Below, one piece after another: positions 6,344 to 19,115 of a DNA stretch of 61,331 bases. The number at the start of each line of letters is the position of its first letter. Within the stretch, counting starts at the first letter, position 1. This stretch comes from Candidatus Saccharimonadota bacterium (GTDB lineage Bacteria > Patescibacteriota > Saccharimonadia > Saccharimonadales > Saccharimonadaceae), in assembly GCA_017557865.1 (NCBI GenBank), contig JAFYXW010000010.1:1-61331 (forward strand). The letters are read 5' to 3'. The notes beneath the pieces are model-generated. The model was not told the origin of the DNA, did no database searches, and saw nothing but the letters and a program-made list of their open reading frames with translations. A program made the position numbers and the translations under genes.

Positions 6344-8464
6344 ATGAATAAACAGGAAGAGGAGCGTCGTGCGCGCCTTTTGAAATCGAGAGCAGAGCGT
6401 CTGCCCGATATTAAGAAACAATTTGAAGAGGCCCAAAAACGCAATTTTAATGCGAATTTTGGCCCGGGCGGTAAAGATGAAAAATTAGTTAAGCCAAAAG
6501 CCGCAAAGGCTACAAAGGCTACCAAAACTACAAAAGCCGCTACGCCAAAAACTAAACAAAAAGTTGAGGCCGAAAAACGCAAAGTCAATTTGTCTGTGAG
6601 CACAAAAAAGAGTGAGATGGTACATCACCAAAGGATGCTTTCACAGGATGTGAACGTGCAAGCTACTCAACATATTATTGGTATTCCAGTAAACAAGTCT
6701 CGTTACAATGGCTACGATGGCGAGCAGGTTACTAACGCCAAATTAAAGTCGATGCGCCCGGATCCGGATTCGGTAAAGATTATCCCGATTGGTGGTGTGG
6801 GCGAGTTCGGTATTGGTAAAAATATGACCATCATAGAATATAAGTCTGAGATGATCGTTGTAGATATGGGCGTGTTGTTTGCTGGCGAAGATTATCCGGG
6901 CGTTAACTACATGATTCCGGATATTAAGTACCTAGAAGATAATAGCGAAAAAATAAAAGCGATTTTGTTTACGCATGCTCACCTAGACCATATTGGTGCG
7001 TGTAGACATCTTTTACCAAAGTTTAATCCTTTGATACCAATTTATGGTACCGATTTTACGATTGGTATGATTAAGAAACAAATGTCCGAGTTGGATGATG
7101 TACCAGATTTTAATTATCAAGTGGTGCAGCCTTTGCAACATCAAAAATATCAGGTAAGTGAACACTTTAATGTAGAATTTATTCATACTTTGCACTCGAT
7201 TCCTGGTAATGCATCGATTTTGGTACGTACGCCAAACGGTACAATTTATCTTTCGGGTGACTGGCGTCACGAAGAAAACCCAATGGGCGTTCAGACGGAT
7301 TATGAACGTCTAGACGAGATTGTTAAAACCGAAGGAATCGATTTGATGTTGAACGAATCTACCAACATAGATTCGCCAGGCAAACATCCACATTCTGAAT
7401 ATGATGTAGGTGAAAACTTGGGTCGCGTGATGGATCATTATGCCAATGGACGCGTAATTATTTCGTGTTTCTCATCGCAGATTTCCAGGATTGAACTTAT
7501 TTTGAAAGAAGCAGCGGCGCGCGGACGCAAGGTGGCGTTCTCGGGCTTTTCGATGATTAACAACGTGGAAGTGGCACTTCGTGCAAAATCTATCAAGGTG
7601 CCAAAAGATACGATTGTAAAAATGGAAGACATCGTAAAACTACCAGACGAAAAAGTATGTATCGTATGCACTGGCTCACAGGGCGAAATGAATGCCGTGC
7701 TCAACCGCATGGTGACTGGTGCACATAAATATATTAAGATTAAAAATACTGATACGATTGTGTTTTCTTCTAATCCGATTCCGGGTAATGAACCACACGT
7801 AGTTGGTACGGTAGATGGTTTGCTTCGTGAAGGCGCACAAGTAATTCAGAATGGTAAAACACACCTAACCAATATTGGGCCTTTGCATTTGTCTGGTCAC
7901 GCATATTTCGAAGATCATGTTGAGTTTGTGACTCGCATGCACCCAACTAACTATATGCCATATCATGGTGAGTTTTACATGCTCGAACACAATGCCGAAA
8001 TGGCAGAGAACGTGCTTGGGATTTCGCGTGATAGAATCTTGGTGGCAGACGACGGCGATATTGTAGAACTTACTCCAGAAAAGAAAATTAAAAAGTGCGG
8101 TAGGATTTATGTGGGCAATAAACTTTATGACGACGCGGATCAGCCAGTGCACGAAGCCGTAGTGAAAGACCGCATTCATATTTCGCGCGAAGGTATTTTT
8201 GTGATTGTGCTGACTTTGAATAAAAAGACTGGGCACCTGATGAAAACTCCGGACATTGTGTCACGTGCGTTTATTTATCTTGATAATTCGGAAGAATTAA
8301 TCGGTAAAATTCGTCATTATCTTCGTCAAAAAACCGACAAGTCGATTTCGACCGATCCAGAAATGAAAGTATTAAAGGAAGAAATCAAAGAAGATATTAC
8401 GCACATCCTCTTTGATGCAACTGGGCACACGCCAATTGTAATTCCGGTAATTAATAAAGTTTAG
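6344..8464 (+). CDS. rnj: ribonuclease J
   Basis: Metallo-beta-lactamase/beta-CASP ribonuclease that cleaves RNA internally and from the 5' end, central to mRNA decay and rRNA maturation in bacteria without RNase E. The zinc-binding motif reads FTHAHLDHIGA (about 209-219), and LSGDWRHEENP supplies a further metal ligand. PGNEPHVVGT and the GEFYMLEHN region belong to the beta-CASP half. At 706 residues it is about 150 longer than Bacillus RNase J: residues 1-145 are a Lys/Ala/Thr-rich, low-complexity extension before the conserved VKIIPIGGVGEFG start of the fold. The AAGGAG site fixes the start at 6344. The stop overlaps the Shine-Dalgarno site of trxB, so the two genes are co-transcribed. Confidence 0.95.
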   Translation: MNKQEEERRARLLKSRAERLPDIKKQFEEAQKRNFNANFGPGGKDEKLVKPKAAKATKATKTTKAATPKTKQKVEAEKRKVNLSVSTKKSEMVHHQRMLSQDVNVQATQHIIGIPVNKSRYNGYDGEQVTNAKLKSMRPDPDSVKIIPIGGVGEFGIGKNMTIIEYKSEMIVVDMGVLFAGEDYPGVNYMIPDIKYLEDNSEKIKAILFTHAHLDHIGACRHLLPKFNPLIPIYGTDFTIGMIKKQMSELDDVPDFNYQVVQPLQHQKYQVSEHFNVEFIHTLHSIPGNASILVRTPNGTIYLSGDWRHEENPMGVQTDYERLDEIVKTEGIDLMLNESTNIDSPGKHPHSEYDVGENLGRVMDHYANGRVIISCFSSQISRIELILKEAAARGRKVAFSGFSMINNVEVALRAKSIKVPKDTIVKMEDIVKLPDEKVCIVCTGSQGEMNAVLNRMVTGAHKYIKIKNTDTIVFSSNPIPGNEPHVVGTVDGLLREGAQVIQNGKTHLTNIGPLHLSGHAYFEDHVEFVTRMHPTNYMPYHGEFYMLEHNAEMAENVLGISRDRILVADDGDIVELTPEKKIKKCGRIYVGNKLYDDADQPVHEAVVKDRIHISREGIFVIVLTLNKKTGHLMKTPDIVSRAFIYLDNSEELIGKIRHYLRQKTDKSISTDPEMKVLKEEIKEDITHILFDATGHTPIVIPVINKV

Positions 8465-8471
8465 GAGGTTT

Positions 8472-9218
8472 ATGATAGACGTAGTAATTATTGGCGCAGG
8501 GATGGCAGGACTTACTGCGGCGATTTATGCTGGGCGGGCTGGCAAAAAAGTTGTGGTTCTAGAAAGCAATGTAAAAGGTGGGGAGATTGTAGAGAGTACG
8601 ATAGTTTCAAACTATCCAGGTGTTCCTGATATTTCTGGTGCAGATTTGATGGAAACTGTAGCAAAACAAGCCGAAGGGTTTGGCACACAAATAAAATACG
8701 AAGAAGTTTTGGGGATTGAAGATCATGGTGAGTATAAAAAAGTTAAAACCGATGAAGGCGAATATGAAGCAAAGGCAGTAATTCTTGCGATGGGCACTGA
8801 GCCTCGTAGACTTAGCGAAAAACAGGCGGCAGACGCAGGAAAAAGACCAGTATCTTATTGCGCGGTTTGCGACGGCGCTTTATATGAAGGTAAGCCGGTA
8901 GTAGTGGTGGGGAGTGGCAACACGGCAAAATATGTAATGAAATATCTTGAGGGGATCGCGTCGAAGGTTTATCATATTCATCACGATGATCCAATCCCAG
9001 AAGATGCGGAAGCGGTGTTTGTGGCGATTGGCCGGGTGCCAAACACTGGGTTTTTGAAAGGTTTGGTAGAACTAGACTCTAATGGTTATGTGGTAGCGGG
9101 TGAAGATTGCAAAACTTCTTGTCCTGGTATATTCGTGGCAGGTGATTGTAGGACTAAAACTACCCGTCAACTTGTAACTGCAGCGGGTGATGGCGCGGTG
9201 GCTGCTGGACAATTATAA
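8472..9218 (+). CDS. trxB: short thioredoxin-reductase-like flavoprotein
   Basis: FAD-dependent pyridine nucleotide-disulfide oxidoreductase of the thioredoxin reductase type. The FAD-binding GAGMAGLTAAIYAG (8-21), the redox-active CAVC pair (Cys130/Cys133), a GSGNTA dinucleotide motif and a C-terminal GIFVAGDC FAD motif are all present. At 248 residues it is about 60 shorter than usual. The loss lies in the NADPH-binding domain: after GSGNTAKYVMKYLEG it runs almost straight into EAVFVAIGRVPNT, without the usual HRR-type NADPH phosphate-binding loop. It may use another electron donor or be partly degenerate. A strong AGGAGG site sits at the rnj stop codon. Confidence 0.85.
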   Translation: MIDVVIIGAGMAGLTAAIYAGRAGKKVVVLESNVKGGEIVESTIVSNYPGVPDISGADLMETVAKQAEGFGTQIKYEEVLGIEDHGEYKKVKTDEGEYEAKAVILAMGTEPRRLSEKQAADAGKRPVSYCAVCDGALYEGKPVVVVGSGNTAKYVMKYLEGIASKVYHIHHDDPIPEDAEAVFVAIGRVPNTGFLKGLVELDSNGYVVAGEDCKTSCPGIFVAGDCRTKTTRQLVTAAGDGAVAAGQL

Positions 9219-9219
9219 T

Positions 9220-9621
9220 ATGGTGGATGGAAATTTAGCTTATTTAAATCCAAAAGATTTTAAAAAGAAAGCGCGTGGGTTTTCTAAAGACCCGGATGCG
9301 ATTATTGCTAGTGCAGAAAAGTGGTCCGAAAAGAGCGTGATTTTTGCGGCGGCGGGGCTTGCGCTTTGCATTATTGGCAGAATGGGCGGGCTTATATCGG
9401 GGATTGGTAGATTCGGACTGGGTGGTGTGATCATCTCGGACATACCTTCCGGGATCGGCGCTATATTGATGGCCGTAGCAGGGTTTTTGGCGCTATCGAC
9501 GCTGGTCTTGGTATTAATCTATGCTAGTAAAAGCAAAAAGAAAATCATACCTATTATTGTAACGGATATCTTTACCATCATAGTTCTAGTCGCCGGGTAT
9601 TTTCTTATGCATATTTTTTGA
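9220..9621 (+). CDS. small membrane protein of unknown function
   Basis: I place the start at the ATG at 9220 (133 residues), two bases after the trxB stop, and not at the in-frame ATG at 9187, which would overlap trxB by 32 nt. The N-terminal 45 residues are polar and resemble a short cytoplasmic domain (KDFKKKARGFSKDPDAI). Three hydrophobic stretches follow, at about 40-58, 73-100 and 109-131. No family is recognised. It is probably the third gene of the rnj operon. Confidence 0.6.
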   Translation: MVDGNLAYLNPKDFKKKARGFSKDPDAIIASAEKWSEKSVIFAAAGLALCIIGRMGGLISGIGRFGLGGVIISDIPSGIGAILMAVAGFLALSTLVLVLIYASKSKKKIIPIIVTDIFTIIVLVAGYFLMHIF

Positions 9622-9695
9622 TAAACGGCGGTTGCAGTTTTTTTGCAGTGTGTTAATTTTTCTTCAGGTCTTGGGAGCTTTTTAATCTTTCGGTA

Positions 9696-9786
9696 ACAGA
9701 TTCTGGTAGGTGGCGCTGTGGGCGCTTGGCTCTCAACGGGAATCTGTCGTGATGTGCTAGATAAATCGGGTTTTAGATCTCCCGTT
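9696..9786 (+). ncRNA. candidate structured leader RNA with two mutually exclusive stems
   Basis: Pairing A: ACAGATTC (9696-9703) with GAATCTGT (9740-9747), perfect 8 bp, enclosing a small GCGC hairpin (9713-9725). Pairing B: AACGGGAATCT (9735-9745) with AGAT-C-TCCCGTT (9775-9786), 11 bp with a one-base bulge. Both use positions 9740-9745, so only one can form at a time, the layout expected for a riboswitch or attenuator. It lies upstream of a strongly ribosome-bound 27-codon ORF. I recognise no known Rfam class. A free-standing small RNA is the alternative. Confidence 0.45.
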
Positions 9787-11846: not shown

Positions 11847-12820
11847 TGAGTATTTTTAACGCTGGTATTAATCCATTTAAGATTAAGCAGACTAAGGTTG
11901 TCCCGATTTTTTATACGATTACGGATGACTATGCTAAATATGCCGCGGCATCAATTAATTCGGTGATGAAGCATGCGGACCCGAATCGTCATTATCGTAT
12001 CATTATTATGTATGATAAGCTAAATTGGCGAAATCGTTTGCGTCTTCGTAACATGGTGACGCGTAACTGCGCGATTGAATTTCATAAAATGAAATACAAT
12101 CTTTATATGCAGATTATCGTACGGTATTGTGCTAAGCGTAGCGGCAGTGGCGATTTCTTTGCAAATGCAGTCTATTATTATCGTGCGTTTATCGCGAGAT
12201 TGTTTTTGCAATATGATAAAGGAATTTATGTTGATAGCGACACGATTTTGATGGATGATATTGGCAAATTGTATGATATCGATTTGGGTAATAATGTAAT
12301 TGCCGGACGCGTAGATCCAAAGGTGGCGATGGTAAAAGAATTTGTCGACTATGTAGAAAAAGGTCTAGATGTGCCGCATACGGATTATATTAATTCTGGC
12401 GTGTTATTAATGGATTTGAAGAAACTGCGTAAGTTACACTACATTACAAAAATGACAGATTTAATCAAAAAAGATGCAGATTTAGTGGCGCCGGATCAAG
12501 ATTACCTTAACGTGATTTTGAAGGGCAAGATTATGCATCTAGATAAAGCTTGGAATTTGCAACCGGAAGGTGAGAACCCAAAAGGAGCAAAAATTTTGCA
12601 CTTTAACTTGTCTAAAAAGCCGTGGTATCACGAAGACGTGAACTGTGGTGAAGAGTTTTGGAATGCTGCAAAGGGAACTGGTTTTTATGGCGACCTTATG
12701 CGCGGCAAGGAAAGATATACTGCCGCCGATGCTGAACGTGATGCAATGAAAATCAAAGCCTTGATAGAAAAAGCGGCCGAACTTTCAAAAGTTAAGAAAC
12801 CACTTTTAAAAGTTAAATGA
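11846..12820 (+). CDS. glycosyltransferase family 8 protein
   Basis: 324 residues. This is a more canonical GT8 enzyme than its neighbour: IFYTITDDYAKYAAASINSV at the start, the DxD motif GIYVDSDTILMDD (about 126-138), YINSGVLLMDLKKL, APDQDYLNVIL and the C-terminal LHFNLSKKPW metal/nucleotide motif. A Lys/Glu-rich tail of about 35 residues follows. Relatives in Gram-positive bacteria add glucose or galactose to lipopolysaccharide-like or wall glycans. It is coupled to the acyltransferase by TAATG and to the next gene by ATGA. Confidence 0.88.
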   Translation: MSIFNAGINPFKIKQTKVVPIFYTITDDYAKYAAASINSVMKHADPNRHYRIIIMYDKLNWRNRLRLRNMVTRNCAIEFHKMKYNLYMQIIVRYCAKRSGSGDFFANAVYYYRAFIARLFLQYDKGIYVDSDTILMDDIGKLYDIDLGNNVIAGRVDPKVAMVKEFVDYVEKGLDVPHTDYINSGVLLMDLKKLRKLHYITKMTDLIKKDADLVAPDQDYLNVILKGKIMHLDKAWNLQPEGENPKGAKILHFNLSKKPWYHEDVNCGEEFWNAAKGTGFYGDLMRGKERYTAADAERDAMKIKALIEKAAELSKVKKPLLKVK

Positions 12821-13998
12821 AAAGTCTACTAAGGATTAGCTTTAATAAATTCATCATTTCGTTTACGCCGATTTTGGTGTGGTTTTTGTTGGGGATTATT
12901 ATTGATTGTGGCTGTGCAAATATTTTTGCACTGACTTATCCGTTACAGTTTATATATATGGTGCTGTTTTCGATTTTTGGTACGGCGCCAAATATTAATG
13001 AGACTAGGGATAAGGCAAAGGGCGCGGCGTTCTCGGGTATGTTGGTGGGCTTTTTTGTTGGCGGGCTAATAACACTTTGTATTGTTCTTAATTTGGATGT
13101 TTATGTAAACTATATGAATATGGATTACGAGACATGCAAAGAGTTTGCGATGTTTTCGGTGGTTTCGCAATTTATTTCGTTTGCATTAACAGTGATCATG
13201 GAAAAACTATATTTTGATAAAAAGGAAAAGCGCGCAAATACATATATGATTATTTATAATGCGATTTATGTTTTTTCGCTTGTGGGAATGGCACTGCTTA
13301 CTAAGGACAAAATGCAAATTGCGACCGTGGCGATTGTGGCGCTTTCGATTTTTGTGATGTATGTAATTATGCGAACTCTAAGGAGCTACCACGCGAAGTT
13401 TAATTTTAATTTATGGAAGTGGATTCGATACGAATCTTATGTAGCGATGAGTAATGTGCTCTATTTTATAGTTTATCTTGTTGGGTTTTCGAATGTATTT
13501 TCGTTCGGGCCAGAATATGCAACCGTGATGAATTTTGTGGCACTAATTACTGATACACAATGGGATTCGTTCGACGCGATTAATACTGTCGCAAAAATTG
13601 ATATTAGCAAAAACAAATTTAATTATAAAAAGAGTTTAAAAAACGCATATAAGCTGCTCGCGATTTTACTTTCTACAATCGTGGTGATGTTTTTGTTTAC
13701 AATTAGGTTTTATAATATTAATATTTGGCTATTCTTGGCGTTCCTCTCGTTTGATTTATATGTGTTCTTAATTTATCCAACATATGCGCTTAAGGCATGT
13801 TATTTGCAGATTTGTTGGTCGCCTTTAGTCACGACAGGAAATAAACTAGTGCAAATGATAATTAGAATGGCGTCTTCGTTTTTGCCGACACCGTTTTGTA
13901 CAAGTATCGGCGGGTTTCTCGGCGAAACATATTTGTGGATAGTGTTTACGATTCTTTATAAAAAACATGGACCAAAAAGAATTAAAAAAACCAGCTAA
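12817..13998 (+). CDS. polytopic membrane protein, possible flippase of the MATE/MOP type
   Basis: 393 residues with about ten to twelve hydrophobic segments, starting directly with a membrane segment (IISFTPILVWFLLGIII). The spacing of helix pairs and the central loop resemble MATE/MOP-superfamily exporters such as Wzx-type flippases. No diagnostic motif is secure, so the family is a guess. As the last gene of the GT8-acyltransferase-GT8 operon, export of the glycan or glycolipid made by these enzymes is the natural hypothesis. The start overlaps the previous stop by four bases (ATGA). The stop codon lies inside the terminator hairpin. Confidence 0.6.
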   Translation: MKSLLRISFNKFIISFTPILVWFLLGIIIDCGCANIFALTYPLQFIYMVLFSIFGTAPNINETRDKAKGAAFSGMLVGFFVGGLITLCIVLNLDVYVNYMNMDYETCKEFAMFSVVSQFISFALTVIMEKLYFDKKEKRANTYMIIYNAIYVFSLVGMALLTKDKMQIATVAIVALSIFVMYVIMRTLRSYHAKFNFNLWKWIRYESYVAMSNVLYFIVYLVGFSNVFSFGPEYATVMNFVALITDTQWDSFDAINTVAKIDISKNKFNYKKSLKNAYKLLAILLSTIVVMFLFTIRFYNINIWLFLAFLSFDLYVFLIYPTYALKACYLQICWSPLVTTGNKLVQMIIRMASSFLPTPFCTSIGGFLGETYLWIVFTILYKKHGPKRIKKTS

Positions 13999-14015
13999 TC
14001 CTAGCTGGTTTTTAG
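13984..14015. terminator. bidirectional terminator overlapping two stop codons
   Basis: AAAAAAA, CCAGCTA, loop ATCC, TAGCTGG, TTTTT. The hairpin contains the TAA of the plus-strand operon (13996-13998) and the TAG of the minus-strand array (14001-14003), so it serves both. Confidence 0.9.
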
Positions 14016-14477
14016 TTGTTCGACAAAGTCTTCTTTTTCGTCATACCAATCATAGAAGCTTAGTCTTTCAATGTACTCTTTTGTTTTCCGCAAAGACTCA
14101 TTAGCATCGTCAGTCTCGTGATAAAAGAACGCAAATGCAAGCATAAATCTGTCGGTGAGTTTTAGGGTATCTTCACAATTCGCGGAATTAGAGGCGTTTA
14201 TATATATCAATGTGTGGCCTTCTTCCGTTTTTTCTCTTTCGTAGTCTTTTAGACTTGTTAGTTTAATGGTGCACAAATAATCTTTTGTGTTTTTGGTTAT
14301 GGCACCACACTCTAAATTCTTTGTGAGAACGAAAGGGCAAAAATATGTGAAAGATTCATCGCTTTTGATATTGCCTCGTCTTGCAATTACTTTTCTTAGG
14401 GAATTTAAATCTACTTCTCCGCGAGATGCGTGACTGATGAGGTTGTTTGCGTATTTTATGAGTTCATCATAACGCAA
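14001..14477 (-). CDS. array gene 5: unknown protein with shared FAFFY C-terminal module
   Basis: 158 residues with a TTG start at 14477. A strong AGGAGGTGG site lies 6 nt before this TTG, and the protein then begins RYDELIKYANNLISHAS, which matches YYDELKEYTDNLIGNSI inside array gene 1 (16344-16955). It therefore lacks the first 50 or so residues of its longer relatives. The C-terminus has the family signature LAFAFFYHETDDANESLRKTKEY and ends in FVEQLKTS. No catalytic motif or membrane segment is visible. It is the last gene of the second transcription unit and ends in the bidirectional terminator. Confidence 0.7.
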   Translation of the reverse strand: MRYDELIKYANNLISHASRGEVDLNSLRKVIARRGNIKSDESFTYFCPFVLTKNLECGAITKNTKDYLCTIKLTSLKDYEREKTEEGHTLIYINASNSANCEDTLKLTDRFMLAFAFFYHETDDANESLRKTKEYIERLSFYDWYDEKEDFVEQLKTS

Positions 14478-14496
14478 TGAAACCACCTCCTAGTTT

Positions 14497-15177
14497 TTAA
14501 GTAATCCAAATTAATTGTTTAAGTAACAATAAGCCAGATAACTTTAATTCGTCTTGTAGGTAAAGTTTTACTAAAGGCTCATGGGTAGTTAAAATTTTGT
14601 TTTCGAAAAATTTCTTAGTTTCTATTGCCGAAGTATATACGTCTTTGTTGTCGTGATAAAAGAACGCGAATATCAACATAATTTCGGGTAGACAATCTGT
14701 TATAACTAAACCATCATCAGGATCATAATCAACAAACATATTGTTGATGTTAATTAAGATTTTCCCGTGGGATATTATGCTTTCGCCACGATAGATATTA
14801 AAATCATCTGGCGATTTACTTATCGTATAAATCGAATCCCACTTGTTGATATAGCTATCTCTAAACTTCGTTAGATTAAATGCACGAGAATAATAACATG
14901 TCCCGTTATCATCCTTTTGTTTTACAATAATATTTTCTAAAACAAATTTCTTTTCTTTGCTACCTAAGATTTCATCAAACACTTCTGTTGAGTATTTTTG
15001 AAGTTCTGTGTAAAAATCTTTTGCTAAAGCATTTCTTTTTTCAATGAGTTCATTCCTGGAAAAAAGATATTTGTCGTAAACGCATTGATCGCCATTTGCT
15101 TTTCTCATCATAGATGCGGCATGGCTGATTTTTCGGTTCAATGACTCTAGCTCGGTTCCGTATTCTTCGTTGGTCAA
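14497..15177 (-). CDS. array gene 4: unknown protein with shared FAFFY C-terminal module
   Basis: 226 residues. The start is most likely TTG at 15177, 6 nt behind AAAGGGGTG, because the resulting N-terminus (TNEEYGTELESLNRKI) aligns with TDAELNNEIKKLNSKI of array gene 1, which also starts with TTG. A GTG at 15186 would overlap the ribosome-binding site. The N-terminal 75 residues are helical and charged. The C-terminal module reads IMLIFAFFYHDNKDVYTSA. Function unknown. It is the first gene of the second transcription unit, with its own TTGACT/TATAAT promoter. Confidence 0.7.
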   Translation of the reverse strand: MTNEEYGTELESLNRKISHAASMMRKANGDQCVYDKYLFSRNELIEKRNALAKDFYTELQKYSTEVFDEILGSKEKKFVLENIIVKQKDDNGTCYYSRAFNLTKFRDSYINKWDSIYTISKSPDDFNIYRGESIISHGKILININNMFVDYDPDDGLVITDCLPEIMLIFAFFYHDNKDVYTSAIETKKFFENKILTTHEPLVKLYLQDELKLSGLLLLKQLIWIT

Positions 15178-15241
15178 TGTAATCACCCCTTTCGTAGTGA
15201 ATAAAAAATAAATTGTTAATTTTCGTCCTAAAACTATCTAT

Positions 15242-15270
15242 ATTATAGCATAAATCTGATGAATAGTCAA
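15242..15270 (-). promoter_or_regulatory. promoter of array unit 2
   Basis: On the minus strand TTGACT (15270-15265), 17-nt spacer, TATAAT (15247-15242). The elements, spacer length and the following bases (ATA, then TAGTTTTAGG) closely match the promoter of unit 1 at 17007-17035, suggesting duplication of the promoter with the genes. Confidence 0.85.
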
Positions 15271-15283
15271 AAAAATAGGGAAG

Positions 15284-15316
15284 TAAAAAACCAGCTTTTA
15301 AAAGCTGGTTTTTAAA
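15284..15316 (-). terminator. terminator of array unit 1
   Basis: Palindrome CCAGCTTTTAAAAGCTGG (15291-15308) with T-runs on either side. It shares the CCAGCT...AGCTGG stem with the terminator of unit 2. Confidence 0.88.
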
Positions 15317-15323
15317 TTTAGTT

Positions 15324-15758
15324 TTAGGTTAATAATAAACGTTCTAAGAAGCTAACGCGACCTTTTTCCCATTCTTCGATTGCGGCTCCTTCGTAGAATT
15401 TTAATGTTTTTTCATAACATTTTTCAAAATTCTTGTTTTTGTAATAGTAGAATGCAAAAGTTGTGATGATTTCGTCTTGGGGGCCCCATGAGTACCATCC
15501 GCTATCTTCGTCTCCATAAATCTTGTAGAACTCATACTTTTTGAACGGCTTTAAATCGATCTTTTTAATTAATTCTTTGGGAATTTTCTTTTTGTACGCT
15601 CCTAGCTCCTTACTGAATTTATTAAGAAGCTCCAATCGGTCCTCCATGTGACCATACCAATTACCACACATCCAGATTCGCGTGCCGTATACTTCCTCGC
15701 AGCGATCTATCAAACCTCGTATGTGTTCCATTTTTTCGCGATAATCCTTAATATTCAT
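15324..15758 (-). CDS. array gene 3: short unknown protein with shared C-terminal module
   Basis: 144 residues. The longer in-frame start at 15836 would overlap the upstream gene by 73 nt. The ATG at 15758 has GAGGTGAG 3 nt before it and lies 4 nt after the upstream stop, so I choose it. The N-terminal half is helical and charged with a Trp/Cys patch (TRIWMCGNWYGHMED). The C-terminal 45 residues carry the family module TTFAFYYYKNKNFEKCYEKT and EEWEKGRVSFLERLL. It is the most divergent member of the array. Function unknown. It ends at a strong terminator. Confidence 0.7.
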   Translation of the reverse strand: MNIKDYREKMEHIRGLIDRCEEVYGTRIWMCGNWYGHMEDRLELLNKFSKELGAYKKKIPKELIKKIDLKPFKKYEFYKIYGDEDSGWYSWGPQDEIITTFAFYYYKNKNFEKCYEKTLKFYEGAAIEEWEKGRVSFLERLLLT

Positions 15759-15762
15759 TTTC

Positions 15763-16329
15763 TCACCTCGCCTTCCTTTGCGACAGTTCATACAACTGCT
15801 GGTAAATATTGATGTCTTCTCTAAAATCTTTTTCAAAGAAATCTTTCATGCTGGCAATTGCTTTGTCCACGTTTTTGCTTTGTCGATAAAAATTGGCAAA
15901 TACAACCGTGATTTTTTCAACGTAATAAGTGTCGTCTTTTTTTAGATCACCGTTTGGGCTGATAATGATGGGTTTGCCCTTAACATGACGTTTTAATTCG
16001 CGATTTGGCAATGCCCTTCCATAAAATATATACGGGCTGTTGTCTGGCTGAGCATGGATTTCGAAACTAATGGAGAATACTTCGGATGCAAAGTTGAAAG
16101 CATGGTGATACTCGTGCGTTCCTAACTGTTTGCCGTTGGAAATTTGAAGACTCGACACTATGTGAATATAGACATTACGAAGTTTTTCCGTGTAACCAGG
16201 TATTTGGTTGTACTTAAATTTTCGTATTAAGTCTTCGGCGTACGTGTACAAACTCTTTTTAAACGTTAGTAATACTTCGTCTTGTAATTCGGTTTTTCCT
16301 TTTTTCTCTAGTCTAGGATCAATAAGCAT
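15763..16329 (-). CDS. array gene 2: unknown protein with shared C-terminal module
   Basis: 188 residues from the ATG at 16329. A longer frame beginning at 16347 (MKEVAT) is actually the ribosome-binding site itself: AAGGAGG lies 8 nt before the ATG at 16329. The central part shows the shared YHHAFNFASEVFSISFEIHA, comparable to YYHAFIFDTKN of gene 1. The C-terminal module is VVFANFYRQSKNVDKAIASM, so FAFFY is changed to FANFY. It ends with Gln/Arg-rich residues and no EEW...FVE tail. Function unknown. Confidence 0.7.
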   Translation of the reverse strand: MLIDPRLEKKGKTELQDEVLLTFKKSLYTYAEDLIRKFKYNQIPGYTEKLRNVYIHIVSSLQISNGKQLGTHEYHHAFNFASEVFSISFEIHAQPDNSPYIFYGRALPNRELKRHVKGKPIIISPNGDLKKDDTYYVEKITVVFANFYRQSKNVDKAIASMKDFFEKDFREDINIYQQLYELSQRKAR

Positions 16330-16343
16330 TGTGGCCACCTCCT

Positions 16344-16955
16344 TCATGTGTCTAATAAAAATTCTACAAATTTACGTTTCCGGTAAAACCATTCTTCGAT
16401 TTTTATTCTCTCGAAGATTTTCTTTGTCTTTTCCAAAGACTCTTCAACATTGTTGTTCTGTCGATAGAAAAATGCAAAAGTAAGCATTATTTTGTCTGGA
16501 GCGGTTAAAAAATCGTATCCAGAACCGACAGTATTACAATTTGCCGAAGTGGGAACTAGGACAGTTATTAAGATGTCGCCAAGATTTTCGCGCTCTTTCT
16601 CGAACTTCATTGATGCTGGCCAACTAGCATTAAGCACGTGAGACCAGGTGTTTTTGGTGTCGAAAATGAAAGCATGATAATACGAATAATAATTTAGTTC
16701 TTCATTTCTTTGTCGAACAAGAACTCTTTTTAGCAGACTTAAATCTGTTCTTCCGTCAATAGAATTGCCTATTAAATTATCCGTATATTCTTTTAATTCA
16801 TCATAATAATTGTCGAGCAGTTCCGACTTTTTGGTGCTAAGTGTTTGTAGCAGACGAGTGTATTCATCGTTAAACGTCTGGTTTGCTCTTTCTTTATTAT
16901 GTTCAATTTTGCTATTAAGTTTTTTTATCTCATTATTTAATTCGGCGTCTGTCAA
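16344..16955 (-). CDS. array gene 1: unknown protein with shared FAFFY C-terminal module
   Basis: 203 residues with a TTG start at 16955 behind AAAGGGGTG (7-nt spacing). The order is a charged, probably coiled helix (1-55), a conserved DELKEYTDNLI segment (about 52-62), LSLLKRVLVRQRN and YYHAFIF in the middle, and the C-terminal module MLTFAFFYRQNNNVEESLEK plus EEW and FVEFLLDT (about 157-203). No signal peptide, membrane segment or known catalytic motif is visible. It heads a three-gene unit (16955 to 15324) with a near-consensus promoter. Gene 2 follows closely. Confidence 0.72.
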   Translation of the reverse strand: MTDAELNNEIKKLNSKIEHNKERANQTFNDEYTRLLQTLSTKKSELLDNYYDELKEYTDNLIGNSIDGRTDLSLLKRVLVRQRNEELNYYSYYHAFIFDTKNTWSHVLNASWPASMKFEKERENLGDILITVLVPTSANCNTVGSGYDFLTAPDKIMLTFAFFYRQNNNVEESLEKTKKIFERIKIEEWFYRKRKFVEFLLDT

Positions 16956-17006
16956 AAAACTTCACCCCTTTCTATTTTTTAATTTACTTCCCCTAAAACC
17001 ATTTAT

Positions 17007-17035
17007 ATTATAGCATGAAAATGGTTGATAGTCAA
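17007..17035 (-). promoter_or_regulatory. promoter of array unit 1
   Basis: On the minus strand TTGACT (17035-17030), exactly 17 nt, TATAAT (17012-17007). The leader to the TTG start is about 45 nt and carries AAAGGGGTG. Confidence 0.87.
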
Positions 17036-17047
17036 AGACAACAAAAA

Positions 17048-17124
17048 TGGTGCGAATGAAGAGACTCTAACTCTCGACCTCTTCCTTGGCAAGGAAGCGC
17101 TCTAAACAACTGAGCTACATTCGC
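17048..17124 (-). tRNA. tRNA-Gly (anticodon GCC)
   Basis: Acceptor GCGAATG / CATTCGC, D-stem GCTC/GAGC, anticodon loop TTGCCAA within CTTCC/GGAAG, T-loop GTTAGAGT, encoded CCA. It lies between the unknown gene array and the cation exchanger. Confidence 0.95.
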
Positions 17125-17214
17125 ACGTCGTAGTCTTATTATATCACATATCTTGATTTTTTTGCAAAATTTTTGTAGAATATAAGCATAACAATTATCA
17201 TATAAAAACATAAC

Positions 17215-18192
17215 ATGATGGATTTAATCTTACCAATTATCTTACTTGTAGTCGGTTTCGTCCTATTGATAAAGGGCGCAGATTGGTTGGTTGATGGTGC
17301 TTCGTCTATTGCGACACATTTTAGAGTGTCTAAGACTTTGATTGGCTTAACTATCATCGCTTTTGGTACAAGTGCGCCGGAGCTTGCAGTGTCGATTTCG
17401 TCACTCGCGAATGGTTCTACGGATATGCTGTTGGGTAACGTGATTGGTAGTAACATTATGAACGTGCTGCTCCTTATTGGTATTGGTGCGATTATTTGCC
17501 CAATCAAGGTAAGTCGCGAAACTACCAAAAAAGAGCTGCCAATTTTACTTCTGATTTCTACAGCGTTAGTGGTGCTATTTCTGGACATTTCTTTAAATGA
17601 CGAACCAAGTAACTCGATTACGCGTAGCGACGCAATTGTGTGTCTTTTGTTCTTCGCAATCTTCCTTTATTACTTAATCGTAATGGCAAAACGAAATCGC
17701 GAAACCAAAGCTACAAAAAAAGAGAAGCCAAAATACAAAATGGGAATGGCTTGTATTATGTCGGTGGTAGGTTTAGTTGGCTTGGTTGGCGGTTCGCAAC
17801 TGGTAGTAGGTAGTGCTACCGATATTGCCCATATGATGGGCGTGTCTGATCGTATTATCGCTCTTACTATTATTGCACTAGGTACGTCTTTGCCGGAATT
17901 AGTAACGACAATTGTTGCAGCGCGCAAGAAAGAAACCGATTTAATCGTAGGTAATATTATCGGCTCGAATATCTTTAATATTTGTATCGTGATGGGTTTA
18001 CCGGTAGCAATATTCGGCACGATCACGCCGGAGAGCTTTGAGATGATAGACATCGTGATGATGATTTTGTCGGCACTACTATTATTTATTGTGACGCGGC
18101 GTGACGAAAAAGTTTCGCGGCGTGAGGGTGCGTTGATGTTGTTAGTCTTCGTAGTGTACTATGGTTACATTGTATACGGAGCACTGGCGTGA
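17215..18192 (+). CDS. calcium/sodium antiporter of the CaCA family (YrbG-like)
   Basis: 325 residues, about ten membrane helices, built as two inverted repeats. Each half carries the ion-binding alpha motif: GTSAPELAVSISSLANG with GNVIGSNIMN (about 51-85) and GTSLPELVTTIVAARK with GNIIGSNIFN (about 223-255). The family exchanges Na+ or H+ for Ca2+ across the cell membrane. A loop rich in Lys (about 160-177) separates the halves. TATAAA lies 8 nt before the ATG, so the transcript is almost leaderless. The ATG at 17218 is an alternative start. The stop overlaps the next gene's GTG. Confidence 0.9.
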   Translation: MMDLILPIILLVVGFVLLIKGADWLVDGASSIATHFRVSKTLIGLTIIAFGTSAPELAVSISSLANGSTDMLLGNVIGSNIMNVLLLIGIGAIICPIKVSRETTKKELPILLLISTALVVLFLDISLNDEPSNSITRSDAIVCLLFFAIFLYYLIVMAKRNRETKATKKEKPKYKMGMACIMSVVGLVGLVGGSQLVVGSATDIAHMMGVSDRIIALTIIALGTSLPELVTTIVAARKKETDLIVGNIIGSNIFNICIVMGLPVAIFGTITPESFEMIDIVMMILSALLLFIVTRRDEKVSRREGALMLLVFVVYYGYIVYGALA

Positions 18193-19115
18193 ACTGGTTA
18201 GTTCTAGTTGCAATTGCTACTTTGCTGGACTCGGCTAGAATTTTTATTGATAACTATACGTCTGACTATTATTTTAAAGGTAAAGATGCAGTCTCGCAAA
18301 AGTTTTTTTACGGCTATGCGATTTTAATAACGGCGATACCAATCTTAATTATACATAGTGGGGATATTTTTAGTACAAGTATTACTACGATATTACTTTT
18401 GATTTTGTCTGGTTTTATGCACGGGATTTCGGGGATTCCGTATTTCAAGGCGCTGGAGCTAGATGATTCGACTAATTTAGGTATTTTTATTCAGATGGCG
18501 CCAATATTATATTTGGTGCTGGGCTGCCTATTTCTTGGTGAGTCGTTTTCGGCTTGGCAATTAGTGGCAATTGCAGTAATTCTTTTGGCACCGATTTTGA
18601 TTGTAGCTACCACTAGAAAACGTAGTCGTAAAATTAGATTACGTGCGGTGTTTTATTCATTTATATATGTATTTATAGCTGTGGTAAGTAATTTGATTTT
18701 TGTGCAAGTAAGTGGCAGTGGCGACCTGTCGCTTTTGCCGGAAGTCGGTTTGATTATGGTAGGGAAAAGTATCGCAAACCTTACAATTGTTTATTCGATA
18801 CCGAAGTTAAGACGGAGATTTAAATATGTGGCGAAAACTAGCCACTACAAAGTGCTACGCCCGATGATTTGTAATCACCTAATTGGATTTATCAAAGAGT
18901 TCGCGTATCGTGGGGCATTAATTGCAGCCCCAGCGGTAGCTATTGCGTCGGCGGCGTCTGATTCGGTGACGCCGGTCGTGATTTTCTTTATGGGCATCGT
19001 GCTTTCTATTATCTGGCCAAACTTTGGCCGCGAGAAGTTAAATCGCAAAAACGTAATAGTGCATTTGATAGCTACAATACTGGTAGTAACGGGAATCATA
19101 ATCCTACAATTTTAG
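18189..19115 (+). CDS. EamA-like (DMT superfamily) transporter
   Basis: 308 residues with about ten membrane helices. The GTG start overlaps the previous stop (GTGA). The helix layout, the short KGKDAVSQ-type N-terminal loop and the motif LGIFIQMAPILYLVLGCLFLG followed by ESFSAWQ at the end of the first five-helix half are typical of EamA/DMT metabolite transporters. The substrate cannot be told. The second half retains LSIIWPNFGREKLNRK near the C-terminus. Coupled translation with the CaCA exchanger suggests joint expression. Confidence 0.75.
   Translation: MNWLVLVAIATLLDSARIFIDNYTSDYYFKGKDAVSQKFFYGYAILITAIPILIIHSGDIFSTSITTILLLILSGFMHGISGIPYFKALELDDSTNLGIFIQMAPILYLVLGCLFLGESFSAWQLVAIAVILLAPILIVATTRKRSRKIRLRAVFYSFIYVFIAVVSNLIFVQVSGSGDLSLLPEVGLIMVGKSIANLTIVYSIPKLRRRFKYVAKTSHYKVLRPMICNHLIGFIKEFAYRGALIAAPAVAIASAASDSVTPVVIFFMGIVLSIIWPNFGREKLNRKNVIVHLIATILVVTGIIILQF

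What the first reader, a model, noticed from the sequence alone, without database searches (positions are those of the whole stretch)
14001..16955. Array of five paralogous genes of an unrecognised family
All five proteins end in a shared module with FAFFY (or FANFY, FAFYY), about 6 variable residues, then a helix with a conserved Lys, and mostly EEW...FVEFLL. The middles share a (Y/H)xAF(N/I)F segment, while N-termini and lengths vary. Tandem, diverged small proteins without catalytic motifs recall immunity-gene or defence arrays under diversifying selection. I know of no named family for it, so this is the best candidate for an undescribed system.
Basis: partly seen in the sequence, partly recalled or inferred. 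Interest (0 to 1): 0.8.

Follow-up and report, generated by a model that had tools for sequence, protein, structure and literature searches.

The report
Orphan protein array with end-paired mRNAs
Five neighbouring genes in a very small bacterial genome encode a fast-evolving protein family that matches nothing in the databases searched, and most of the family's messenger RNAs begin and end with short matching sequences that could hold the two ends of the RNA together.

Summary
Five paralogous genes (14001-16955, minus strand) form two operons directly downstream of tRNA-Gly(GCC). Leave-one-out profiles recover all five. I aligned 34 members from 11 genomes, all in this genus (7 of 174 genomes, plus one doubtful trace) and one sister genus (5 of 45, one only a fragment). 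I found none in a sample of the rest of the phylum, nor in phages, plasmids or viral contigs. No Pfam, NCBIfam, PHROGs or PADLOC family fits. Two confident AlphaFold models (pLDDT 91 and 93) show an alpha/beta domain, with or without a helical hairpin, and no convincing PDB match. Conserved positions are hydrophobic core, so an enzyme is unlikely.

Cognate ends pair better than swapped ends (2 of 20,000 permutations), and whole-transcript folding predicts end pairing (0.75, against 0.18 with shuffled 5' ends).

The array looks like a diversifying repertoire of binding or immunity-type proteins. No toxin partner, phenotype or known immunity fold supports that role. dN/dS is mostly about ten times that of flanking genes but below 1.

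The parts
17048..17124 (-). tRNA-Gly (GCC) directly upstream of operon 1; the same tRNA stands directly upstream of the family genes in G129 and G443
   Evidence: ARAGORN; Rfam; sequences
17007..17035 (-). Promoter of operon 1: TTGACT-17-TATAAT with extended TG
   Evidence: scan (11 of 12 matches); the same element precedes most family operons
16992..16999 (-). GTTTTAGG at about +1 of operon 1, conserved across the family
   Evidence: the +1 position is inferred from the -10 box
16344..16955 (-). Gene a, 203 aa; AF2 model pLDDT 90.9
15763..16329 (-). Gene b; weakest direct match to gene a of the five
   Evidence: 67 bits, leave-one-out
15324..15758 (-). Gene c, 144 aa; has a 64 percent identical counterpart in G180
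15321..15328 (-). CCTAAAAC spanning the stop codon of gene c (CC-TAA-AAC), complement of the operon 1 leader motif
   Evidence: sequence; duplex -12.9 kcal/mol
15286..15313 (-). Intrinsic terminator of operon 1 (listed by the scan on the + strand; the hairpin serves the - strand operon)
15242..15270 (-). Promoter of operon 2: TTGACT-17-TATAAT; 82 percent identical over 45 nt to that of operon 1
15227..15234 (-). GTTTTAGG at about +1 of operon 2
14497..15177 (-). Gene d, 226 aa
14001..14477 (-). Gene e, 158 aa, without the helical hairpin; AF2 model pLDDT 93.1
13986..14013 (-). Terminator of operon 2; here the 3' complement has decayed to a partial CTAAAAAC

Best explanation
The array is a repertoire of small, probably cytosolic, non-enzymatic binding proteins. 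They share one alpha/beta scaffold with variable loops and an optional helical hairpin, and they are carried in standardised expression cassettes at a variable site beside tRNA-Gly. Cassettes are lost, gained, shuffled and partly converted by recombination while the protein part diverges. The most likely role is immunity-like: each variant binds and neutralises one version of a variable antagonist (a competitor's toxin, or a phage or mobile-element protein). The mRNA 5' end pairs with the sequence around the last stop codon. I infer that this pairing protects the mRNA ends or ties translation and decay together, and that it lets all cassettes be controlled alike. Shown here: family, fold prediction, cassette architecture, covarying end complementarity, fast evolution, patchy distribution. 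Inferred: binding function, immunity role, and any effect of the pairing.
For: Family and fold. No invariant polar residue, core hydrophobic. Copy number 1-8 or more at a shared site, with shared subtypes in different order and paralogues older than the species. A decayed cassette (63-aa fragment) in G443 and a fragment in G466. dN/dS 0.24-0.36 in four of five orthologue pairs (0.04 in the fifth) against about 0.02 in htpX, ligA and a membrane gene of the same two genomes; gene 6 differs at 67 percent identity while its 3' end is identical. Cassette conservation. End pairing: duplex -10.6 against -9.15 kcal/mol for swapped ends, 2 of 20,000 permutations, and -4.9 for shuffled 3' regions; pairing probability 0.75 against 0.18. 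The closest analogue is the esaG immunity array of S. aureus, with blocks of similarity including the gene end and intergenic region that promote recombination (PMC9484751).
Against: No partner toxin or target was found, and genome-wide toxin content was not examined. No sequence match to any immunity family. dN/dS stays below 1, so relaxed constraint would also fit. Most genomes of the genus (about 95 percent) lack the family. In the window's own operon 2, and in G443-9, G562-1 and G120, the 3' complement is degenerate or absent. The permutation test does not remove species relatedness. All RNA evidence is computed; no transcript data.
Confidence: 0.4

Rival explanations
1. Intracellular anti-phage defence or sensor repertoire: members recognise variable phage proteins and arrest infection, or inhibit them directly.
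For: Variable site beside a tRNA; in G180 the array adjoins a serine recombinase gene and a DUF4379/DUF559 protein. Array expansion and fast change.
Against: No consistent PADLOC hit in 34 members. No nuclease, NADase, membrane or other effector domain in the array proteins.
Confidence: 0.2
2. Toxin-type genes kept silent by mRNA fold-back, working like hok or aapA mRNAs, whose 5' and 3' ends pair so that full-length mRNA is not translated until its 3' end is trimmed.
For: Conserved, covarying end-to-end pairing; multi-copy chromosomal cassettes as for aapA/IsoA (PMC6733600).
Against: Products are mostly 144-230 aa soluble domains, not small membrane peptides. The pairing covers the 5' end about 20 nt upstream of the Shine-Dalgarno sequence and does not cover it. 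No antisense antitoxin RNA was identified (not searched for systematically; Rfam one search found only tRNA and rRNA). Many units are polycistronic.
Confidence: 0.12
3. Effectors delivered to the bacterium on which this small-genome cell may live.
For: Lineage-restricted, diversified, multi-copy. A host-dependent lifestyle is assumed from genome size and own knowledge, not tested.
Against: No obvious signal peptide in the sequences (inspection only, no predictor run). The conserved C-terminal module is part of the folded core, so it need not be a secretion tag.
Confidence: 0.13
4. The 8-12 nt inverted repeats act on DNA, as ends of mobile or invertible gene cassettes, not on RNA.
For: They flank each operon's coding part exactly, and their extensions match within a unit. 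A recombinase gene lies in the G180 island.
Against: Promoter and terminator, which lie outside the repeats, are equally conserved parts of the unit. No recombinase was seen in the flanks read in G000, G129, G443, G562 or G552. No inverted copy was seen. Bulges and G-U pairs are tolerated (U2, U5, U8 of G443), which fits RNA better.
Confidence: 0.1

Closest known systems
esaG / tsaI / tipC immunity gene arrays of type VII secretion systems (PMC9484751)
   Same: Strings of non-identical paralogous small proteins, copy number varying between strains, similarity blocks at gene ends and intergenic regions, recombination between paralogues, orphan copies without a toxin.
   Different: No sequence match to any Pfam immunity family; no T7SS locus or cognate toxin seen beside the array; each operon has its own promoter, and the mRNA ends are complementary.
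hok/Sok and aapA/IsoA type I toxin mRNAs (PMC6733600)
   Same: Conserved long-distance pairing between mRNA 5' and 3' ends, in several chromosomal copies.
   Different: Here the protein is a large soluble domain, the pairing does not cover the Shine-Dalgarno sequence, the 3' partner often spans the stop codon, and no antisense RNA is known.
Intrinsic-terminator A-tracts (ordinary bidirectional terminators)
   Same: An A-rich stretch precedes the GC stem, which explains part of the AAAAC.
   Different: The CCT part and its extensions match the unit's own leader; operon 1 is the strongest of 101 promoter-terminator combinations in the window.

Membership tests
T7SS-type immunity array (EsaG-like) | Homology to a known immunity family (for example YezG/EsaG, SUKH, Imm) | tested here: not met
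   No immunity family among the Pfam matches listed for 24 members at E up to 0.1 (25 of 32 families shown) or for the five window proteins at E up to 10; NCBIfam none consistent.
T7SS-type immunity array (EsaG-like) | Same fold as a known immunity protein | tested here: inconclusive
   Foldseek PDB best E 0.39 and 0.08 with poor TM; VIA best Z 6.8.
T7SS-type immunity array (EsaG-like) | Tandem non-identical paralogues with recombination between them | tested here: met
   Tandem paralogues and reordering. Recombination is indicated by one allele replacement and homogenised flanks in G092.
T7SS-type immunity array (EsaG-like) | Cognate toxin that the protein binds and neutralises | not tested
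   Neighbours were read at about ten loci without a consistent toxin; genome-wide toxin search and binding not done.
hok/aapA type I toxin mRNA | Pairing between mRNA 5' and 3' ends | tested here: met
   Predicted, with covariation; no transcript data.
hok/aapA type I toxin mRNA | Small hydrophobic membrane toxin | tested here: not met
   Products of about 144-230 aa with a soluble alpha/beta fold.
hok/aapA type I toxin mRNA | Pairing sequesters the Shine-Dalgarno sequence; antisense RNA antitoxin | tested here: inconclusive
   Paired segment lies about 20 nt upstream of the Shine-Dalgarno sequence; no antisense RNA search was possible without RNA data.
Known anti-phage defence system | Match to a PADLOC family | tested here: not met
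   Six different families hit one member each at E 1e-4 to 1e-2, none shared.
Mobile cassette with terminal inverted repeats | Unit moves or inverts between its repeats | not testable with these tools
   No read data; promoter and terminator lie outside the repeats.

The most novel reading that the evidence does not exclude
A new kind of bacterial expression cassette, a closed-loop mRNA. The transcript's first nucleotides pair with the sequence around its stop codon, so that a terminating ribosome opens the loop and an idle message is locked or protected. The device is kept across two genera while the encoded proteins diverge to about 20 percent identity, and it drives a diversifying repertoire of a protein family with no known relatives.
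Probability: 0.3. Interest if true: 0.85.

Novelty: new variant of a known kind. Interest (0 to 1): 0.6.

Why it matters
A genome under 0.7 Mb keeps five copies of a protein with no known relatives, and a relative keeps eight or more. This suggests strong selection in organisms that have shed most genes. If the proteins are immunity factors, they point to an unknown antagonist. If the mRNA end pairing is functional, it is a new regulatory arrangement in which each cassette's leader and stop-codon region evolve together, and it can be tested by reporter fusions in ordinary laboratory bacteria.

Tried and rejected
The weak genus-wide hits at profile positions 53-100 in about 300-aa proteins are mostly one conserved, unrelated protein (resembling a 2-oxoacid dehydrogenase acyltransferase domain) and a few other unrelated proteins. 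Hits elsewhere in the phylum cover only the coiled coil. Scans of genome contigs and viral contigs with peptide patterns found no relative. Phage and plasmid tblastn: no match. The leader motif in viral contigs gives chance matches without promoter or family gene. A motif-only search in the genus recovered all operons already known then plus one new member (G137); its other hits, such as an S1-domain (rpsA-like) gene leader, are unrelated. PDB profile hits such as Csy1 at E 0.03 were judged chance. Spt16 PH-like and eL38-like structural hits at Z 5-7 lie within the stated noise level. A 16S probe sequence of Saccharibacteria, recalled from memory, was not found; the contig starts inside the rRNA operon, so this is uninformative and the lineage is not named.

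Full report
WHAT IS THERE. The window is one whole contig of a 694 kb genome and begins inside an rRNA operon. On the minus strand between 16955 and 14001 lie five genes in two operons. Operon 1 (a-b-c) starts just downstream of tRNA-Gly(GCC). Both promoters are TTGACT-17-TATAAT with an extended TG and are 82 percent identical over 45 nt. The two terminators are 83 percent identical over 30 nt. The proteins are otherwise 20-37 percent identical to gene a.

IS IT A FAMILY. Yes. With each member left out in turn, a profile of the other 33 finds it with 21 to 113 bits, against at most 12 for shuffles. The five window proteins get 59 to 92 bits. The conserved positions are hydrophobic or aromatic (L54, L75, V78, Y92, F96, I130, F160, F163, Y164, L200 of gene a). 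No polar residue exceeds 74 percent (E182), so an enzyme is unlikely.

WHO HAS IT. In 174 genomes of the genus, seven carry it: G000, G180, G092, G129, G128, G137 and G120. A doubtful decayed trace with stops lies in G063. In the sister genus 5 of 45 carry it, one of these (G466) only as a fragment. A sample of 287 genomes of the phylum gave only coiled-coil noise outside. Phages, plasmids and viral contigs gave none. In both genera the usual site is near tRNA-Gly(GCC) and lemA-htpX-ligA, or the GT8 operon next to it; G128 and G137 have it behind another tRNA gene. In 20 genomes of the genus fetched as controls, the tRNA-Gly site holds ordinary genes and no family member.

HOW IT EVOLVES. The tree puts c, e, d/h and f subtypes of different species together, so the paralogues are older than the species and the arrays change by loss, gain and reordering. 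Between the close pair G443 and G579, htpX, ligA and a membrane gene have dN/dS near 0.02. Array genes 5, 8 and 9 have 0.24-0.32, gene 7 has 0.04, and gene 6 has 0.36 at 67 percent amino-acid identity with an identical 3' end, which looks like allele replacement by recombination. Between G000 and G180, dN for c and e is 0.26-0.38 against 0.07-0.16 in flanking genes. This is fast evolution, but positive selection is not proven.

STRUCTURE. Gene a (24-row alignment) gives pLDDT 90.9, pTM 0.87: a helical hairpin (3-66) that leads into an alpha/beta domain with four strands, and a helical C-terminal part that contains the FAFFYR helix. Gene e (34 rows) gives pLDDT 93.1, pTM 0.88, a matching order of elements without the hairpin. 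Foldseek against PDB and BFVD finds nothing at E below 0.05. VIA-align gives at most Z 6.8, to coiled coils for gene a and to Spt16 PH-like domains for gene e, within the stated noise. Novelty of the fold is therefore possible but not proven.

THE CASSETTE. Across 18 aligned leaders of both genera, TATAAT, then usually 7-8 nt, then GTTTTAGG, then an ACATTA-like block and an AGGTGGTGA-like Shine-Dalgarno sequence are conserved, although the proteins share only about 20 percent. The motif alone finds every operon known at that point and revealed a new member in G137. Just before the terminator stands CCTAAAAC, the exact complement of GTTTTAGG, or a variant of it. It often spans the stop codon (CC-TAA-AAC), but in G180, G443-7, G443-2 and G137 it lies past the stop, so protein coding does not explain it. 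Variants fit their own leader: G443-2 CCTGAAAC and G443-8 CCTAGAAC pair by G-U; G562-2 has extra T in the leader and extra A at the end; G128 extends to TAGGTTTTAGG/CCTAAAACCTA; G180 operon 2 to TAGTTTTAGGAT/ATCCTAAAACTA. Over 24 units cognate ends have mean duplex energy -10.6 kcal/mol, swapped ends -9.15, shuffled 3' regions -4.9. Only 2 of 20,000 permutations are as good as the real pairing. Among 101 promoter-terminator combinations of the window, operon 1 is the strongest. Folding whole transcripts of 590-1730 nt, the first 13 nt pair with the tail with mean probability above 0.55 in 14 of 18 units. In 11 units tested against shuffled 5' ends the means are 0.75 and 0.18. Exceptions are the window's own operon 2, G443-9, G443-4 and (partly) operon 1 at 0.40; G562-1 and G120 have lost both or most of the motif. 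The permutation test does not remove species relatedness, and transcript ends are inferred.

WHAT IT MOST LIKELY DOES. A conserved scaffold with variable parts, no catalytic residues, many divergent copies, recombination and orphan status are the marks of immunity-type repertoires such as esaG (PMC9484751). I give about 0.4 to this reading. End protection, or coupling of termination and re-initiation, is my inference.

VERDICT. The defence reading is possible but untested. The conserved, covarying mRNA end complementarity is the more surprising finding.

Noticed in passing
L026 (G180:C1) 12227-18729: Between the array and the exchanger gene lies an insertion with a 542-aa serine recombinase (Resolvase domain), a 698-aa protein of eight DUF4379 zinc-finger repeats plus a DUF559 stretch, and a 242-aa protein without Pfam match.
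   Followed up: partly
L028 (G092:C13) 8705-8810 and 9605-9720: The two cassettes share an identical stretch of about 110 bp upstream of their start motif and identical terminators, evidence of recent cassette duplication or homogenisation.
   Followed up: partly
window 12817-13998 (+): 393-aa multi-spanning membrane protein next to the array without any Pfam match at E up to 10; it resembles a flippase-type protein by eye.
   Followed up: partly
L086 (G443:C5) 7411-7660: A cassette with intact leader motif and terminator but only a 63-aa ORF, apparently a decayed family gene.
   Followed up: partly
L029 (G128:C4) 9118-9780: 220-aa protein without Pfam match, on the far side of the tRNA gene next to the two family genes of this genome; its promoter lacks the GTTTTAGG motif.
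   Followed up: no
L113 and L185 (G579): Assembly breaks inside the array: contig C47 ends in a family gene and C20 ends at a leader motif, so copy numbers in draft genomes may be underestimates.
   Followed up: partly
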